The notes under the pieces: generated by a model
Database searches by the model: none
What the model saw: only the letters and a program-made list of their open reading frames with translations
What the model was told of the DNA's origin: nothing
DNA from: Ophiosphaerella korrae
Taxonomy: Eukaryota > Ascomycota > Dothideomycetes > Pleosporales > Phaeosphaeriaceae
Length of the DNA stretch: 64,000 nucleotides
Reading direction: 5' to 3'
Assembly (NCBI GenBank): GCA_028456385.1
Contig: JALNQF010000058.1
Coordinates: 158,032-222,031 of the forward strand
Part shown: positions 3,912 through 60,020 of the stretch, in pieces
How positions within the stretch are numbered: position 1 is the stretch's first letter
How the letters are laid out: the number at the start of each line of letters is the position of its first letter
Program-made: the position numbers and the translations under genes

Positions 3912-5075
3912 ATGCCTGGCAATTTCGAACTTCTGTGCCTGGAGAATCCGCTATTGGACATTCAGGGTGTTGGGTGCGTCATTTCTGCTGCAACAAGCCC
4001 ATGAGTTCCGCGCGAACCTCTTGCTGACGAAGAAATAGAGACCAAGCGCTGCTCGACAAGTATGGCCTCAAGGCCAACGATGCAATCCTCGCTGATCCCG
4101 AGAAACACATGGGTCTATACGAGGACCTAATCCAGAACTACAAGGCCGTGCTGATTGCCGGAGGTGCGGCGCAGAACACGGCGAGAGGTGCACAGTACAT
4201 CCTCGAGCCCAACTCGACCGTCTACATTGGCTGCATTGGCAAGGATAAGTATGGCGAGACGCTTGAGAAGATCTCTGGAGAGGCCGGCGTCAAGACCGAG
4301 TACCTTTACGACGAGAAGACGCCCACCGGTCGCTGCGGTGTCGTTATTACTGGCCACAACCGCTCGCTTTGCACTGATCTTGCAGCCGCGAACGAGTACA
4401 AGGTCGAGCACTTGAAGCAGGAGCGTATCTGGAAGCAGGTTGAGAATGCTCAGGTATTCTATGTTGGTGGCTTCCATTTGACTGTCTGTGTGCCAGCCAT
4501 CAAGGCACTCGCAGAGGAGGCTGCCGCAAAGAATAAGGTGGGCATTGTCGCTAAGTTCCATCACCAGGGTACTGACGTTTTTGTAGACCTTCATTCTCAA
4601 CCTCTCCGCACCCTTCATTTCCCAATTCTTCAAGGACCCTCTTGATGAAGTCTTGCCCTACGTTGACATTTTGATCGGCAACGAAACCGAAGCAGCGGCA
4701 TTTGCTGAGTCACATAACATTGAGTCCAAGGATATCAAAAAGATTGCCGAGGCAATTGCGAAGGGTCCCAAGAAGAATAGCAAGCGCACAAGGACAGTTG
4801 TGTTCACACAAGGCACCGACGCTACCATTGCCGTTAGTGCGAAGGAAGACGGCCAAGTGGATGTCAAGGAAGTTGCTGTACACGCTATTGGTGAGGATAA
4901 GATCAATGACACCAACGGTGCCGGTGATGCTTTCGCCGGAGGATTTGTTGCTGGTATTGTCCAAGGCAAATCGCTTGAGACATCAATCGACATGGGACAA
5001 TGGCTCGCCAAGTTGAGCATTCAGGAGCTGGGCCCATCATACCCGCAACCCAAGCAGACTTACACTGCTAGCTAA
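3912..5075 (+). CDS. ado1: Adenosine kinase
   Basis: Exons 3912-3973, 4039-4537 and 4587-5075 give 349 aa, the usual length. The enzyme phosphorylates adenosine to AMP with ATP; it salvages adenosine and clears what is released from S-adenosylhomocysteine in the methyl cycle. It belongs to the PfkB/ribokinase family. The N-terminus MPGNFELLCLENPLLDIQGVG is typical, PfkB signature 1 is seen at AGGAAQNTARGAQ, and signature 2 at NDTNGAGDAFAGG with the catalytic base Asp301. Both introns are short (65 and 49 nt) and GT-AG. Intron 1 falls inside the codon for the second Gly of GVG, intron 2 between codons. Nothing is missing and the gene looks intact. Confidence 0.95.
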
Positions 5076-5604: not shown

Positions 5605-5747
5605 GCCCGTTTGGCGCAGTGGTAACGTACGTCCACTCTGATTCCTCCATTGTCTGTTCCAGCATAGGTCTAACTTGTGATCCAGGCGTCGCACTTGTAC
5701 CTTGTACAGAAATGCGAAGATCCGCGGTTCAATTCCGCGAGTGGGCA
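5605..5747 (+). tRNA. tRNA-Thr(UGU) with two introns
   Basis: Removing 5627-5685 and 5700-5711 leaves a 72-nt tRNA including discriminator A (position 17 absent). Acceptor GCCCGTT pairs with AGTGGGC (5740-5746). T8, A14, G15 with C48, G18G19, A21, G26, T33, A37, TTC(54-56), A58 and C61 are all present. The D stem has three Watson-Crick pairs (10-25, 11-24, 12-23) and a C13-A22 mismatch. The anticodon stem TCGCA/TGCGA is perfect, with anticodon TGT. The T stem CGCGG/CCGCG is perfect. The A box (TGGCGCAGTGG) and B box (GGTTCAATTCC) are good Pol III promoter elements. The 12-nt intron lies after position 37, the canonical site, and can pair with the anticodon. The other interruption, between 23 and 24 in the D arm, is not canonical. 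The gene may be functional with a novel intron, or a disrupted copy. Confidence 0.85.
5627..5685 (+). other. Spliceosomal-type intron or introner-like insertion in the tRNA D arm
   Basis: This 59-nt segment begins GTACGT, has CTAAC at 5670-5674 (branch A 12 nt before the end) and ends CCAG. Length and signals match the spliceosomal introns of neighbouring protein genes. It separates tRNA positions 23 and 24; the break could be slid by one base because both sides start with G. Pol III transcripts are not normally spliced by the spliceosome, so how or whether it is removed is unknown. Confidence 0.75.
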
Positions 5748-5753
5748 TAAATC

Positions 5754-5759
5754 TTTTTT
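5754..5759 (+). terminator. Pol III terminator of tRNA-Thr
   Basis: A run of six T residues lies 6 nt after the tRNA discriminator base, as expected for RNA polymerase III termination. It supports the mapped 3' end of the tRNA gene. Confidence 0.8.
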
Positions 5760-6509: not shown

Positions 6510-7551
6510 ATGGGTAGGGTCATTCGCAACCAGAGGAAGGGTCGCGGCTCTATCTTCACGGCCAACACTCGCCTGAACAAGGCCCCCGCCCAATTCCGCA
6601 CGCTCGACTACGTATGTTGGCGCCGCCCAACCTCGAAATTGAACATGTCAAGAGCACGCAGCTAACTGGCACAGGCTGAGCGCAATGGATACATCCGGGG
6701 TGTCGTAAAGGAGATTGTCCACGATTCTGGTCGTGGTGAGTACTCGGCCTGATATCGACCATTGTGCACACGACTGACAATTTCTCTACAGGCGCTCCTC
6801 TCGCCAGGGTCACCTTCCGCAACGTGCGAAATTCACACCTCCCGCTCAACTAGACGCAACGCTCACAATTCTGTAGCCATACCGGTTCAAGCACAACACC
6901 GAGACCTTCATCGCAAACGAGGGCGTGTACACTGGCCAGGTCAGTTGGAGAACAGCATGTGCACAACATGGGAATATATGGCCTAACATCTCACAGTTCA
7001 TCTACGCCGGCAAGAACGCTGCTCTCACCGTCGGAAACGTCCTACCTCTCCACTCCGTACCCGAAGGTACCGTTCTCACCAACGTCGAGGACAAGTCTGG
7101 TGACCGTGGTGCGCTCGGTCGTACCTCTGGTAACTACGTTACTGTCATCGGTCACAACCCTGATGAGGGCAAGACCCGTGTCAAGCTTCCATCTGGCGCC
7201 AAGAAGGTTCTCCCCAGCTCGTGCCGTGGTATGGTTGGTATCGTTGCTGGCGGTGGCCGAACAGACAAGCCCCTCATGAAGGCTTCGCGAGCTAAGCATA
7301 AGGTGAGCATCTTAACACCACTAGCACAAGTATCCCACTAACCGTCACAGTTCGCTGCCAAGCGCAACAGCTGGCCCAGGACTCGTGGTGTTGCCATGAA
7401 CCCCGTCGACCATCCTCACGGTGGTGGTAATCATCAGCATATTGGTAAAGCCTCGACAATCTCCCGATACGCCGTCCAGGGTCAAAAGGCCGGTCTCATT
7501 GCCGCGCGGAGGACAGGTCTGCTCCGTGGTACCCAGAAGACCAAGGATTAG
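6510..7551 (+). CDS. rpl2: 60S ribosomal protein uL2 (L2/L8)
   Basis: Six exons (6510-6611, 6675-6735, 6792-6823, 6877-6939, 6997-7302, 7351-7551) give 254 aa, exactly the eukaryotic uL2 length. uL2 sits at the peptidyl-transferase region of the large subunit and is needed for subunit joining. The start [16 protein letters not shown] and the signature [19 protein letters not shown] near the C-terminus are diagnostic. The protein is strongly basic. Five short introns crowd the first 60% of the gene and exon 3 is only 32 nt, a dense pattern common in fungal ribosomal protein genes. All sites are GT-AG and phases agree. The gene appears intact. Confidence 0.97.
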
Positions 7552-48912: not shown

Positions 48913-50549
48913 CAATAGGTCACTGCCAACAGAGCACAGTTAGTGTCAGGAACACCATCCCTAAAACCTCTTTCACCGACGAGGCGCGACAAATAGGCAC
49001 AAGAAAGGACTTGTTGAAAGAGAGGGAGGGCAGTTAGCATTGTTAACATAATTTTGAACATTTCGTTTGCGCATTTAGCTTACTCAACTCACTTCCTGCT
49101 CTGCAGCGCTACAAGTGCTCTGACAGATTTAGATAATGTCTCATATAGATGTTGATATCAACTAGAGCAAGATTATTGACGTTCTCACTTCGCATTAGCG
49201 ATGTCTTTTGTATGGTCTGACGAATTACTCTTGATCTGTACAAGTCGCTAAAAGTATTTCGCTGATACCGATTATACCGTGCGTGGACCACAGAACGTGC
49301 CAGACTTCAACACCAAGAAAGGCAAATTCCGCACGCCCGTCCATGTCATCGACAACCACATACAAACTAATGATAGAGTTCAAAATTCAGCACTGGCAGG
49401 CTGTGATATCTGGCTCCCTATCATTCTCCTTTATCACTAACTCTGTCCGCAGTCTTCCAGTGCTCTCTAACTTACCCCTAGCAGCGCCTCGCTGCTGGCA
49501 TCGTACCGTTGCTGGCATGCCCTTGGTTCTAGCAGCCCTGTGCTGCTAACAACTCCTCGCTGCTGGGATTTACTAATCTCTGGCAGCCTGCTGCTGCTGA
49601 TCCTGTGGTCGTAATACTTACTTTAGCTTACTTTGCATGATTAAGAATATACGAGACCAAAGGTTCTGCCCTATAATTATGCAATATATACTACATAGTT
49701 CTAGAGCTAATGAGTATCGCCCGCCATAAAGGCTATGAGGTCCGTTGCTAAGCCGCCCATTACAGCCTCTCTGCAGCTGAGATCCTAGGAACGGATGTGC
49801 TCCCCTACCGTAGGACGCACTTCTGTTGGAGTATGGTAAGCGAGGAGGATTATAAACCTTCACGAGTGCTACGTTATCGCAAGGGGAAGCGCCGGTGCTC
49901 TACATCACTGGTCGTAATATAATGTTCTTACTAGGGATCTTTATAGTATATTCCTATCCTAGGTGTAATGTGATTTCCTTACCCCGTATCTCTACAGTGT
50001 GCGCGTTTCGCTCGTAGATCTGCTGTTTGCATTTAAGCAGTTCGAGATCTAGTAAAATTTGCTAGTCCTGGCCATTAGTCAACTTGGCTAACAGCACCCC
50101 GGCTGGTATAAGCGCTGGCGGTCTTAGCTGTAGCTCTCTAGGCTTAGGGATGTTGTGTGGACTAAGTCGCTGCTTGCCGTGCTAGATCGTTCTTAGTAAG
50201 GTGACCGCGTCTTCTTGGCGATCGTTCCCGTTTTAGTTCCTACTCAAGCGTGGCGGATCAGGAATGGGAGCTTCCCCAGATCAAGCCCTTTCTGGAAGCT
50301 GCTAACCCTGATTGGGTTCTAGTGGTCTTTGCCGCCTAACGAACCTCTAATCGATGTTGTAGTGCATGCTGATGCTATCACTACACTCCTTCCTCTTGCT
50401 GCCTGCGGAACACAGTACGTCTTATACCTGTCTCCGAACACGAAAGAATTTAATTCAACCATGTGTCACTTTAGAGCCTGGGGATAGGCGGTGAGACACA
50501 GCATAGAGTACGGGAAGGATATGGGGTTTTCTTTTTGCACGGGACTGCA
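48913..50549. other. Decayed sequence left of the foldback element
   Basis: No intact ORF. GCTGCTGG-type direct repeats occur at 49485-49605. The string ggtcgtaata recurs at about 49609 and 49910, hinting at remnants of a mobile element. No clear protein similarity was found. Confidence 0.35.
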
Positions 50550-50551
50550 TA

Positions 50552-51852
50552 GTGTAGCTTATCACCTGACGCCCAGCCTCACCTAACGCCTGTTTTTTCC
50601 CCTTAGCCCCCCCCCTCTATCTTAATAACTACTTTTTCTATTAACTCTAGATTTTAGTATAGGTTATAAATTAGTATTAGAAATTACTCTATTAATTTAT
50701 TTTTAAAATATATATATATATATATATATATAAATATTAAACCTTAAAATATTTAAGTATATTTTACTTAATTATAATTAATTATATAATAGAGAGTAAT
50801 AAAAAGCTATAAATCTAAATTTTGATTATTTATATATATAGTTAAAAGTTATAAATATTACTAATATCTAATACTATATACTTAATTAGTTATTTAAAGC
50901 TAAACTTTCTCTATAAGCTTTATAAAAAAATTATTAATATAATAATAATTTTTCTAATTAATATATAGAAAAAATTACTAATATAAGTTATATTAAAGTC
51001 TACTTACTTAATATTTAGTTAAATAAGTAAATTATTGCTATAAAGTAATAATTTTTTAATATATTTAGTAAAATTAATAAACAATTTATATATTTTATAT
51101 ATATATATTAATACTATAATTATATATACGAATAGTTAAAACTATACATCTTAAAATAATAATACTATTTATATATTCTTTTATAGAATTTACTAGAAAT
51201 TTAATTAAAATAATAGGATTTTATATAGTTTTTAAACTTTTAGAATATATCTAATAAATATAAGAAATTTTTTATACTAATTACTTTTTAGAAATAAATC
51301 TAAAATTAAATAAATAATAGAATATACGTTATATTTATAGTTTTATATATATTTTATATAAATTTAGCTAAATATAAAGTAAGTAGACTTTAATATAACT
51401 TATATTAGTAATTATATATATATATATATTAATTAGAAAAATTATTATTATTATATAAAATACCTATTATATTAATAATATTTTTATAGAGCTTTATAGA
51501 GAAAGTTTAGCTTTAAATAACTAATTAAGTATATAGTATTATATATTAGTAATATTTATAACTTTTAACTATATATATAGATAATCTAAATTTAGATTTA
51601 TAGCTTATTATTACACTCTATTATATAATTATTTATAATTAAGTAAAATTTACATAAATATTTTAAAGTTTAATATTTATACTAATATTAATTTTTTTAT
51701 AAAAAATAAATACCTAGAGTAATTTTTAATACAAATTTATAATATATACTAAAATTTAGAGTTAATAGAAAAAGTAGTTATTAAGATAGAGGGGGGGCTA
51801 AGGGGAAAAAACGGGCGTTAGGTGAGGCTGGGCGTCAGGTGATAAGCCACAC
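50552..51852. mobile_element. AT-rich foldback DNA element with long terminal inverted repeats (mariner-type TA target)
   Basis: Both ends read inward as GTGTRGCTTATCACCTGACG, continuing through a shared GC-rich block to a C8/G7 run (left 50605-50612, right 51790-51796). The element is flanked by TA on both sides (50550-50551 and 51853-51854), fitting a Tc1/mariner-like TA target-site duplication. Inside the GC-rich ends the sequence is almost pure A/T. The arms stay complementary far inward: a block at about 50970-51025 is the inverse of one at about 51362-51412. Arms are therefore ~475-490 bp around a ~335-bp AT-rich loop. No transposase ORF is present, so it is non-autonomous (MITE/foldback type), perhaps driven AT-rich by RIP. 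A (TA)n run lies at 50708-50731. Confidence 0.85.
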
Positions 51853-51854
51853 TA

Positions 51855-52341
51855 CAAGCTAGTCCTTATGCGACTAGGAGGCGGCCAATCTCCATGCAGC
51901 GACGGTGAAAGAGACGCGCTACCCACATTTGATGTTACTATATTTAGGGTGGCTCAAACCTCGTAATTGCTGCCTAAAAATTATGGGCAGCGCCTCCCTG
52001 CCGTATACATTGGGTATTTCTCAGACACCTCGCCTCGTGAGAGTTTCTCGAACCCAAGACGACACGACACGTCCTGGGCAATAAATTGAGAGCTTCAAAG
52101 AATTATTTTATACCTGCAAGGGGTTAAATCCTGGTAAGTCCTCGGTGAATACCTCAGAGGCTACTACCTATTGTGCCCTTTTAGCATAGCGTACTTAGCA
52201 ACTAAGCTATTTTATCTGTTACCACTAATTAAACCCTCAGGTTATTCTATCGCTGACTCTCCGACCATTACGTTTCGATCCAAGCTTTTCTGTAACAGTG
52301 GGACTTAACTGGAAATCTGAATACTAGTCTCTGCTGCGATA
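51855..52341. other. Spacer right of the foldback element
   Basis: 487 bp of mixed composition with no gene recognised. It would hold the promoter of the membrane-protein gene that starts at 52342. Confidence 0.4.
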
Positions 52342-57742: not shown

Positions 57743-60020
57743 ATGGCCCGCAAAGCGGCCCAAAAGAAGGCCGTCCAGGCTTCACCCCTGGATGGATGCT
57801 CAATTGCCACGTCAGGAAAGTTCCCCGGCACCACCCAAGCAGCCCTCGCAGAGCGCGTCACATCACTTGGTGCTACTATTGCAGCGAAAGTCACATCAGA
57901 CACCACCTTTCTGATCGCGACGGAAAAAGACTATGAAGCGAATTCGACTAAAGTCAAGGCTGCCGCTGCCAATGGTGTTCCCGTCGTCACGCTTGAATGG
58001 TTGGACGAGTGCGAATCTACAAGTAAACACCCATCTCAACCAATCATGGCATATGCAATGACTAAACTTGGGGATAGACACGAAGGCAGATGAGACGCAG
58101 TATCTTCTATCGTCATCTGGGACGGCTGTAGCTGCCCCTGCGAAGAATCAGGCCAATGGCTCGAAGAAGCGCGCTGCACCAACATCTAACGCTTCACCTT
58201 CTGCGACTCAAGACGCGTCGCAGGCCAAGAAGGCAAAGATTGCAGAAAACGCCAAAGTTGGTGATGGCCAAAACGCAAAATCCAAGACGGTTGCGGTCTC
58301 CGTAGATGAGCATTGCCCTCTAGCTACTTACAAAGTTTGGATCGATCCAGATGGTTTGATTTGGGATGCATCGTTGAATCAAACCAATGCTTCCCACAAC
58401 AACAATAAATTCTACAAAGTTCAGGTGCGCAAATTAATCAGCCTTGTTCTCTGATTCATACTGATTGACGCCAGATGCTCCACGATGGTACTGGTACTAC
58501 CTTCAGGACATGGACACGCTGGGGGCGGGTTGGTGAACGCGGTCAATCCGCCATGCTTGGCAGCGGATCCTATGGTGAGGCGCAAAGCAATTTCCAAAAG
58601 AAATTTAAAGATAAGTCTGGCCTCAGATGGGAAGATCGTGGCGAGCAGCCTAAAGCTGGCAAGTATGCGTACGTCGAGCGGTCATACAACCCAGACTCAG
58701 ACGAGGAGGAAGAAGATGACGAGGCCGCCGCTGAAGCAGACGGAGAAAAGAAAAAGGCCGGCAAAGCCCCAGTTGCAGAATGCACCCTCGAGCCACAGGT
58801 GCAAGACTTGATGAAGCTCATTTTCAATCAATCCTACTTCGATGCTACCATGTCCGAACTCAACTACGATGCTAACAAACTGCCTCTGGGGAAGCTTAGC
58901 AAAGGAACCATTGCCCGAGGGTTCCAAGCGCTCAAAGATCTTTCGGTCAGGCTGGACAGTAACGATGCAGCCTCCAGGGCCGAAGTAGAGCACCTTTCCA
59001 ACCTCTTCTACTCGGTCATTCCCCACGCCTTTGGCCGCAACCGCCCCCCAGTCATCCACACCAAAGATCTCCTTAAGAAGGAAATCGAACTCCTCGAGAG
59101 TCTTTCAGACATGAAGGAAGCCGCGGCCATGCTCAAAAACAGCCTCAAAGACGACGGCGGCATCCACCAACTCGACCGCCAATTCCAAGGCCTCAACATG
59201 GCCGAAATGTCGCCCCTCGACCAAAACAGCAAAGAGTTCACCCTCCTCTCCACCTACCTCCACGACTCTAAGGGCGCCACCCACCACCTCAACTACAAAG
59301 TCGAATCCATCTTCCGCATCGAGCGCGCCGGCGAATTCGACCGCTTCGCCCAATCCGACTTCTCAGCCGTCAAGAAAAGCAACCGCCGCCTTCTCTGGCA
59401 CGGCTCGCGCGTCACCAACTTCGGCGGCATCCTCGGCCAGGGCCTGCGCATCGCGCCCCCAGAGGCCCCCGTCTCGGGCTACATGTTCGGCAAGGGCATC
59501 TACCTCGCCGACATGTCGTCCAAGTCGGCCAACTACTGCTGCCCGTATACCTCGGGCGGCACAGCGCTGCTGCTGCTGTGCGAGGCGGAGCTGGGCAACC
59601 CCATGCACGAACTTACGGATGCGTCGTATACGGCGGGCGAGGACGCGAGGGCGAAGGGCATGTGTGCGACGTGGGGCAAGGGCTTGACGGGGCCGAGTAA
59701 GTGGAAGGATGCAAAGTGCGTGAATCCCGCGCTGAAGGGGTGCATGATGGTATGTTTTCTTTCTCTTTTTTTTTCTTCTTTTGTTCCCCCCTTGTTTGGG
59801 GGTTGGTTGTTGCACAATTGCTAATGGGCATTAGCCTGATGTTTCTGTTGCGCCGGGCCCGACGAATGTGCCGAATGCGTATCTGCAGTATAACGAGTTC
59901 ATCGCGTATGATGTCGCGCAGATTCGCCTGCGGTACTTGTTCCGCGTGAATATGAGTTGAGGACTGGAGGACCGGAGGACCGGGGAGGGGGGGGGGGGGG
60001 GGGCTGGGGTTGGGGGATAG
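57743..60020 (+). CDS. Poly(ADP-ribose) polymerase (BRCT-WGR-PARP)
   Basis: Exons 57743-58022, 58078-58424, 58475-59749 and 59835 onward. The enzyme attaches ADP-ribose chains from NAD+ to proteins during DNA-damage response in the nucleus. Domain order: BRCT (about residues 15-95; PLDGCSIATSGKFPGTTQAA, VPVVTLEWLDECE), basic linker with KKRAAPTSN, WGR (TYKVWIDPDGLIWDASLNQT, FRTWTRWGRVGERGQSAMLG), PARP regulatory helical domain, and catalytic domain. The H-Y-E triad is complete: His518 in LLWHGSR, Tyr552 in GKGIYLADM and Glu655 in LQYNEFIAYD. No zinc fingers, as in other fungal PARPs. Read literally, the last exon runs to TAG at 60018-60020. One extra T at about 59940-59942 throws the normal ending (LRYLFRVNMS, stop 59959) out of frame and adds a tail read from a poly-G tract. 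This is either a base-call error or a real terminal frameshift. Confidence 0.92.
59988..60003 (+). repeat. 16-nt poly-G run
   Basis: A homopolymer of 16 G lies just after the expected PARP stop, followed by more G-rich sequence (ctggggttggggga). It is able to form a G-quadruplex and is prone to sequencing error. Confidence 0.9.

What the first reader, a model, noticed from the sequence alone, without database searches (positions are those of the whole stretch)
5605..5747. Nuclear tRNA-Thr(UGU) split in the D arm by a spliceosomal-type intron
Seen: the acceptor, D, anticodon and T arms of a tRNA-Thr are all present in order, but a 59-nt segment (5627-5685) lies between positions 23 and 24. It has GTACGT, CTAAC and CCAG signals like the local mRNA introns. 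Removing it together with a canonical 12-nt intron restores nearly every invariant tRNA base and a Pol III terminator follows. Known: nuclear eukaryotic tRNA introns normally sit at 37/38 and are cut by the tRNA endonuclease, not the spliceosome; D-arm introns are known in a few algae and archaea. Inference: a novel tRNA intron, a spliceosome-processed Pol III transcript, or a recent introner-like element landing in the gene.
Basis: partly seen in the sequence, partly recalled or inferred. Interest (0 to 1): 0.92.

Follow-up and report, generated by a model that had tools for sequence, protein, structure and literature searches.

The report
Spliceosome-type introns inside fungal tRNA genes
In this fungus several nuclear transfer-RNA genes, including the only intact ones found for tryptophan and for one lysine tRNA, are interrupted by introns that look just like messenger-RNA introns, so the messenger-RNA splicing machinery may be needed to make some of the cell's tRNAs.

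Summary
Window 5605-5747 is a tRNA-Thr(UGU) gene with a 59-nt GTACGT...CTAAC...CCAG insert between positions 23 and 24 and a 12-nt ordinary intron at 37/38; with both out, ARAGORN reads tRNA-Thr(TGT). It is not a lone oddity. Among 62 nuclear tRNA sequences collected from the same 63-Mb Pleosporales-like assembly, 8 carry such inserts (48-59 nt): Thr(UGU), Lys(CUU), Lys(UUU), Cys(GCA), Gln(CUG), Leu(CAA), Trp(CCA), Pro(UGG). The intron motif is in these 8 and in 0 of the other 54. Cys, Gln and Lys(CUU) have insert-free paralogs fitting the junction. The only nuclear Lys(UUU) gene and the only intact Trp gene found are split; a second, insert-free Trp-like sequence has broken stems. No bulge-helix-bulge fits. 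Best explanation: spliceosomal introns in Pol III tRNA genes, removed by the spliceosome. Splicing is inferred; no RNA data were available. Ten open-library searches listed no earlier report; a 2017 paper names U3 and U6 as the only small structured RNAs often interrupted by an intron. A second, insert-free Thr(UGU) gene exists, so this copy may be dispensable.

The parts
5605..5747 (+). tRNA-Thr(UGU) gene, whole, with two introns
5605..5626 (+). 5' exon (positions 1-23)
   Evidence: acceptor 7/7
5612..5622 (+). A box TGGCGCAGTGG, intact (11/11 to TRGYNNARNNG, consensus recalled)
5627..5685 (+). 59-nt spliceosomal-type intron at 23/24
5627..5632 (+). 5' splice site GTACGT
5670..5674 (+). branch-site motif CTAAC; branch A (5673) 12 nt from the intron end
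5683..5685 (+). 3' splice site CAG
5686..5699 (+). middle exon up to position 37; anticodon TGT at 5696-5698
5700..5711 (+). canonical 12-nt tRNA intron at 37/38
5712..5747 (+). 3' exon with T arm and discriminator A; B box GGTTCAATTCC at 5726-5736
5754..5759 (+). T6 Pol III terminator

Best explanation
The 59-nt insert is a spliceosomal (U2-type) intron in an RNA-polymerase-III-transcribed nuclear tRNA gene, one of at least eight such tRNA introns in this fungal genome. Pol III transcribes the gene from its A and B boxes to the T run. The spliceosome recognises the GT donor, the CTAAC branch site and YAG and removes the insert as a lariat; only then can the D arm (or anticodon or variable arm) take its mature form, after which the tRNA endonuclease and ligase remove the 37/38 intron where there is one and RNase P, RNase Z and the CCA enzyme finish. 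Shown: anatomy, signals, recurrence, insert-free paralogs, largely intact exons, no unsplit nuclear Lys(UUU) gene and no unsplit intact Trp gene found. Inferred: Pol III transcription, removal by the spliceosome, and the order of steps.
For: 8 tRNA genes with inserts of 48-59 nt; donors GTAAGT (6), GTACGT, GTTAGT; CTAAC (7) or CTAAT (1) with the A 9-13 nt from a YAG end. The scan that found them asked for T-arm and acceptor pairing and T8/R9, with a small bonus for an A-box-like start, not for splice signals. The motif occurs in exactly these 8 of 62 tRNA sequences, 0 of 54 others. Lengths match mRNA introns of the window (48-85 nt, n=10 from three genes). Insert-free paralogs: Cys L065/L050 align with one 53-nt gap and 36 of 36 exon letters around it are equal; Gln L072/L102 and Lys(CUU) L058/L039 fit by eye (sequences; the aligner misplaced these two). 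With inserts and, in four genes, the 37/38 intron out, ARAGORN names 7 of 8 with the anticodon read by hand; Gln, whose 37/38 intron was left in, is misnamed. Acceptor stems pair 7/7 in seven genes and 6/7 in Pro, T stems 5/5 in all 8. No TTTT in the 8 inserts. Lys(UUU): only the split nuclear gene found. Trp: the split gene is the only intact one found. No bulge-helix-bulge; no group I or II match.
Against: No RNA evidence at all. Thr(UGU), Cys, Gln(CUG) and Lys(CUU) have insert-free copies, so those split genes could be dispensable or silent. A second Trp-like sequence without insert exists at about C223:404200-404285 (L114): T stem 5/5 and a TTCCA anticodon loop, but acceptor 5/7, no clear D stem, T5 in its 5' part, and no ARAGORN call at default; if it works, Trp does not need splicing. 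It was missed, which shows the limits of those searches. The split Trp gene has an A-C mismatch atop its anticodon stem, Pro one acceptor mismatch. In one search other GT..AG deletions also gave ARAGORN calls (for example two more Lys(UUU) choices with the right anticodon and one more Cys), so ARAGORN alone does not fix the junctions. The tRNA inventory is incomplete (no Phe, His or Gly(GCC) found). No related genome could be examined. The one U6 gene over the cut-off has no intron. TTTT is absent from 8 of 10 mRNA introns too.
Confidence: 0.86

Rival explanations
1. The split genes are dead: introns (or intron-like DNA) landed in spare tRNA copies that are no longer expressed.
For: Thr(UGU), Cys, Gln and Lys(CUU) have insert-free copies; a truncated 54-nt copy of the Thr gene at C208 and a Trp-like relic in L114 show that damaged tRNA copies exist.
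Against: Acceptor and T stems, A and B boxes and terminators are largely intact in the 8, unlike in the L114 relic. In the Cys pair exons are near identical while the segment after the anticodon, which I take for the 37/38 intron, has diverged. The only nuclear Lys(UUU) gene and the only intact Trp gene found are split.
Confidence: 0.08
2. The inserts are tRNA-endonuclease (bulge-helix-bulge) introns at unusual positions, as in Cyanidioschyzon, and the GT-AG look is coincidence.
For: Introns scattered along the cloverleaf and interrupting A and B boxes exist in that red alga (PMC3978253, passages).
Against: 0 of 8 junctions have a 4-bp central helix with 3-bp flanking helices; the central helix reaches at most 3 of 4 (one strict register, no positive control run). 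8 of 8 have donor, branch and acceptor signals, 0 of 200,000 shuffles do.
Confidence: 0.03
3. Recent introner-like mobile elements spread one sequence into tRNA genes.
For: Several genes hit in one genome; some insert-free paralogs.
Against: The longest match between any two inserts is 9 nt, at the donor end; the Thr insert matches only itself and one truncated copy in the genome at E<=0.001; junction repeats are 0-3 nt and inconsistent (read). Such inserts would still be spliceosomal introns.
Confidence: 0.05
4. Assembly artefact.
For: None seen; reads not available.
Against: Eight separate contigs, one architecture, splice-site junctions.
Confidence: 0.01

Closest known systems
mRNA-type introns in fungal U6 snRNA and U3 snoRNA genes
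   Same: Short structured RNA gene interrupted by a GT-AG, CTRAY intron; fission-yeast U6 is a Pol III transcript whose intron is removed by the spliceosome (passage in PMC8917221; passages in PMC5832005).
   Different: Different RNA class; here at least 8 tRNA genes of one genome, at 7 different positions, about six of them with an endonuclease-type intron as well (four taken out; Cys and Gln judged by length). U6 in this genome has no intron.
Noncanonical and multiple tRNA introns of Cyanidioschyzon merolae
   Same: Nuclear tRNA genes interrupted outside 37/38 and missed by a standard tRNA finder (passages in PMC3978253).
   Different: Those rest on bulge-helix-bulge motifs cut by tRNA endonuclease; here no such motif but full spliceosomal signals.
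Canonical eukaryotic tRNA introns at 37/38
   Same: Also present in this gene (5700-5711) and, by ARAGORN, in many tRNA genes of this genome.
   Different: Position, signals and presumed enzyme differ from the 59-nt insert.
Spliceosomal introns in nuclear rDNA of fungi
   Same: Spliceosome-type introns in a non-coding RNA gene (named in PMC11782384 passages).
   Different: rRNA transcript, not tRNA.

Membership tests
Spliceosomal (U2-type) intron | GT..AG boundaries with extended donor GTRNGT | tested here: met
   8 of 8 GT-AG; 7 of 8 GTRNGT, Cys has GTTAGT
Spliceosomal (U2-type) intron | Branch-site CTRAY at a short distance from YAG | tested here: met
   8 of 8, branch A 9-13 nt from the intron end
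Spliceosomal (U2-type) intron | Length and signals like the host's mRNA introns | tested here: met
   48-59 nt vs 48-85 nt (n=10); signals stronger than in the mRNA set: GTAAGT 6/8 vs 0/10, Fisher p=0.0015; CTAAC 7/8 vs 3/10, p=0.025
Spliceosomal (U2-type) intron | Presence/absence at one junction between homologous genes | tested here: met
   Cys L065/L050 by alignment; Gln L072/L102 and Lys L058/L039 by eye; for Thr the second UGU gene is too diverged to prove it; not available for the rest
[quoted passage not shown]
   no RNA data
tRNA-endonuclease intron | Position 37/38 | tested here: not met
   positions 11/12 (twice), 14/15, 23/24, 24/25, 25/26, 34/35 and variable arm (numbered by hand)
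tRNA-endonuclease intron | Bulge-helix-bulge at the junctions | tested here: not met
   0 of 8 in one strict register, no positive control
Group I or group II intron | Match to Rfam intron models | tested here: not met
   none at E<=0.5 in loci of the 8 genes
Introner-like element | Many near-identical copies | tested here: inconclusive
   no similarity among the 8; Thr insert has one truncated relative; not compared with all introns of the genome

The most novel reading that the evidence does not exclude
A fungal lineage in which spliceosomal introns have invaded nuclear tRNA genes, including apparently the only working genes for Lys(UUU) and Trp(CCA), so that translation depends on the spliceosome acting on Pol III pre-tRNAs, with the tRNA endonuclease acting on some of the same precursors. 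In the three genes split inside the A box (Lys(CUU), Lys(UUU), Gln) the intron's own GTAAGT supplies A-box letters (10 of 11 consensus positions kept), so splice donor and Pol III promoter overlap.
Probability: 0.75. Interest if true: 0.95.

Novelty: new variant of a known kind. Interest (0 to 1): 0.93.

Why it matters
Eukaryotic tRNA splicing and mRNA splicing are normally treated as separate systems. Genes that need both would show that the spliceosome can process short, uncapped Pol III pre-tRNAs in several structural contexts, would tie decoding capacity to spliceosome activity, and would explain why standard tRNA finders miss or misname such genes. It also gives a clean setting for asking how new introns arise, because the target is short, structured and sometimes has an insert-free paralog.

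Tried and rejected
Self-splicing introns: no Rfam group I/II match. Bulge-helix-bulge: rejected on a strict-register test only. Introner family: not supported. Junction repeats are 0-3 nt, not consistent. A Trp candidate at C457 has no T stem or anticodon arm and was dropped. Intron in U6: not present. Searches for split tRNAs of this type in viral contigs and genome contigs: 0 matches, as expected since those hold no fungi by design. RNA folding of the Thr and Lys(UUU) genes with and without inserts was uninformative for Thr (z -0.54 spliced, -1.09 unspliced; the minimum-energy fold is not a cloverleaf) and better for Lys(UUU) (z -2.76 spliced, -0.91 unspliced). Long inserts in L094, L101 and L129 show no spliceosomal motif and are left unexplained; for L101 and L129 the Rfam alignment puts them in the anticodon arm.

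Re-reading fetched loci turned up a second Trp-like sequence in L114 without the insert but with broken stems; the claim now reads 'only intact Trp gene found', and the two confidence values were lowered a little for this.

Inventory limits: the 62 sequences come from Rfam tRNA matches (60 matches, 19 on C92; only the best candidates are scored) and four T-arm-plus-TTTT patterns (the listing was cut). I fetched the matches that looked tRNA-like by eye (8 regions, 20, 14, plus the 30 loci returned). Two of the 62 (L047, L059) were named by ARAGORN, not by my scanner. Dropped before the count: everything on the mitochondrial-looking contig C92, mitochondrial-like tRNAs L009, L040 and L041, six Rfam matches where ARAGORN found no gene (L053, L056, L057, L060, L061, L062), the second and third Ile copies on C46, the L114 Trp-like sequence, and pattern matches with no acceptable acceptor or T stem.

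Full report
WHAT THE WINDOW IS. The window is nuclear DNA of a filamentous ascomycete: contig C534 of an assembly of 63,029,884 bases in 974 contigs. The main open frame of a PARP gene (gene at 57743-59960) has its best database match, 83% identity, in Phaeosphaeriaceae sp. PMI808; most of the next named matches are Pleosporales (taxonomy recalled), with a few exceptions such as a Talaromyces entry. The species is unknown. Next to the finding lie a pfkB-family carbohydrate kinase gene, adenosine-kinase-like by recall (3912-5075), and the ribosomal protein uL2 gene (6510-7551, named by reading and recall); both give open reading frames after removing GT-AG introns.

THE OBSERVATION. The tRNA-Thr(UGU) at 5605-5747 is as described. 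The 59-nt insert starts GTACGT, has CTAAC with its A 12 nt from the end, and ends CCAG. It lies between positions 23 and 24; a 12-nt ordinary intron lies at 37/38. ARAGORN without introns finds nothing in the raw gene, calls tRNA-Ser when only the 59 nt are out, and tRNA-Thr(TGT) when both are out.

THE DECISIVE STEP: LOOKING AT THE OTHER tRNA GENES. I collected tRNA genes of the same assembly with the Rfam tRNA model (60 matches, 19 of them on the mitochondrial-looking contig C92) and with T-arm-plus-terminator patterns that do not care what lies upstream. I fetched the tRNA-like ones and scanned them for a 5' acceptor strand up to 320 nt upstream that pairs with the 3' strand, followed by T8 and R9. 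Splice signals played no part in this scan. Seven further genes came out with inserts outside 37/38: Lys(CUU) L058, Lys(UUU) L055, Cys(GCA) L065, Gln(CUG) L072, Leu(CAA) L092, Trp(CCA) L130 and Pro(UGG) L054. Each of the 8, Thr included, starts GTNNGT, ends YAG, and has CTAAC or CTAAT with the A 9-13 nt from the end; lengths are 48-59 nt. In the list of 62 nuclear tRNA sequences the loose motif occurs in these 8 and in none of the other 54, among them 15 longer than 95 nt. Shuffling the inserts gave 0 fits in 200,000. A caution: I tried every GT..AG deletion of 35-79 nt, and several other deletions also gave ARAGORN calls, mostly with wrong anticodons but a few with the right one; the junctions therefore rest on the signals and the paralogs, not on ARAGORN.

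INSERT-FREE PARALOGS. Cys L065 and L050 align with one 53-nt gap in the D arm; the segment after the anticodon, which I take for the 37/38 intron, has diverged while the exons are nearly the same, so both copies look old and constrained. The 36 exon letters around the insert are identical. Gln L072 minus its 50-nt insert begins GGTTTTGTAGTGTAGCGGTTATC, the same as L102 (by eye; the aligner placed the gap elsewhere). Lys L058 minus its insert differs from L039 by one letter over the first 37 (by eye). For Thr, the second UGU gene (L038) has a different D arm, so it shows that an insert-free UGU gene exists but not the exact empty site.

SOLE COPIES. For Lys(UUU), the gene search found the split gene and one Lys(CUU) gene at 85%, and the anticodon-to-T-arm pattern found the split gene and one on C92. 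The gene search missed two Lys(CUU) genes known from other calls, so its reach ends near 85% identity. For Trp, the gene search found only the two halves of the split gene, and a pattern found it and one non-tRNA. But a Trp-like sequence without insert turned up in a fetched locus (L114, minus strand 577-661, 85 nt). It has a 5/5 T stem and a TTCCA anticodon loop, but only 5/7 acceptor pairs, no clear D stem, TTTTT in its 5' part, and no ARAGORN call at default settings; I take it for a decayed copy, which is a judgement. AAA and UGG codons need these tRNAs by standard decoding rules (recalled). If the assembly is complete and the L114 sequence is dead, the split genes must work.

COMPARISON WITH THE HOST'S mRNA INTRONS. 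Ten introns of three genes (uL2, pfkB kinase, PARP) were placed by continuous reading frames and, for PARP, by alignment to homologs. They are 48-85 nt long. None has the full donor GTAAGT, whereas 6 of 8 tRNA inserts do (Fisher p=0.0015); CTAAC is in 7 of 8 against 3 of 10 (p=0.025). The tRNA introns thus carry unusually strong signals. A plausible reason (inference) is that an uncapped, structured Pol III precursor tolerates only the best splice sites. The mRNA sample is small.

PROMOTER AND TERMINATOR. The 8 genes have TTTT starting within 13 nt of the 3' end and none has TTTT inside the insert, though 8 of 10 mRNA introns also lack it. In the three genes split within the A box, the genomic sequence still matches TRGYNNARNNG at 10 of 11 positions, because the intron's GTAAGT supplies the missing letters. 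TATA-like stretches lie upstream of these and of many unsplit tRNA genes, so they do not discriminate.

ALTERNATIVES. Junctions do not form the bulge-helix-bulge of archaeal or Cyanidioschyzon type (strict register, no positive control). There is no group I or II match. The inserts are not copies of each other. A 54-nt copy of the Thr gene's 5' exon plus the first 32 nt of its intron, with two T-to-C differences, sits alone at C208:29581-29634 between unrelated flanks. It shows that unspliced sequence of this gene was copied once, not that the intron is mobile.

WHAT IS KNOWN. [quoted passage not shown] Noncanonical tRNA introns of C. merolae are handled through bulge-helix-bulge motifs (PMC3978253, passages). 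Passages seen of PMC11782384, PMC4605306, PMC4494063, PMC4035089 and PMC8393795 mention no spliceosomal intron in a nuclear tRNA gene. Ten full-text searches of an open-licence library listed no such report; some lists were cut (one search showed 20 of 1,801, 15 of 749, 15 of 19), and subscription papers are not covered, so priority cannot be claimed firmly.

VERDICT. Real, recurrent and best explained as spliceosomal introns in Pol III tRNA genes. The parts are known kinds; the combination appears new. The missing piece is RNA.

Noticed in passing
L002 1501-1554 (G000:C208:29581-29634, - strand): Isolated 54-nt copy of the Thr gene's 5' exon plus the first 32 nt of its intron, two T-to-C differences, unrelated flanks; a captured fragment of unspliced sequence.
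   Followed up: partly
L114 minus strand 577-661 (about G000:C223:404200-404285): Second Trp-like tRNA sequence without the spliceosomal insert: good T arm, TTCCA anticodon loop, but 5/7 acceptor pairs, no clear D stem and TTTTT in its 5' part; probably decayed.
   Followed up: partly
L094 273-503; L101 120-259; L129 123-269: Three tRNA-like genes with long inserts (total 231, 140 and 147 nt) that lack spliceosomal signals; for L101 and L129 the insert falls in the anticodon arm. Anticodons not settled.
   Followed up: partly
G000:C92 (L014, L015, L016) and G000:C2:113942-114013 (L009): Several copies of a tRNA-Val(UAC) gene scattered on the mitochondrial-looking 88-kb contig, and a similar tRNA-Val on contig C2.
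   Followed up: no
G000:C46:423852-426835: Three tRNA-Ile(AAU) copies with the same model score within 3 kb, one on the opposite strand.
   Followed up: no
window 50001-52000: AT-rich island (28% GC against about 46% on either side), as in repeat-induced-mutation-degraded repeats of filamentous ascomycetes.
   Followed up: no
G000:C185:41983-42081 (L135): U6 snRNA gene over the Rfam cut-off, matched end to end in 99 nt, so without intron.
   Followed up: yes
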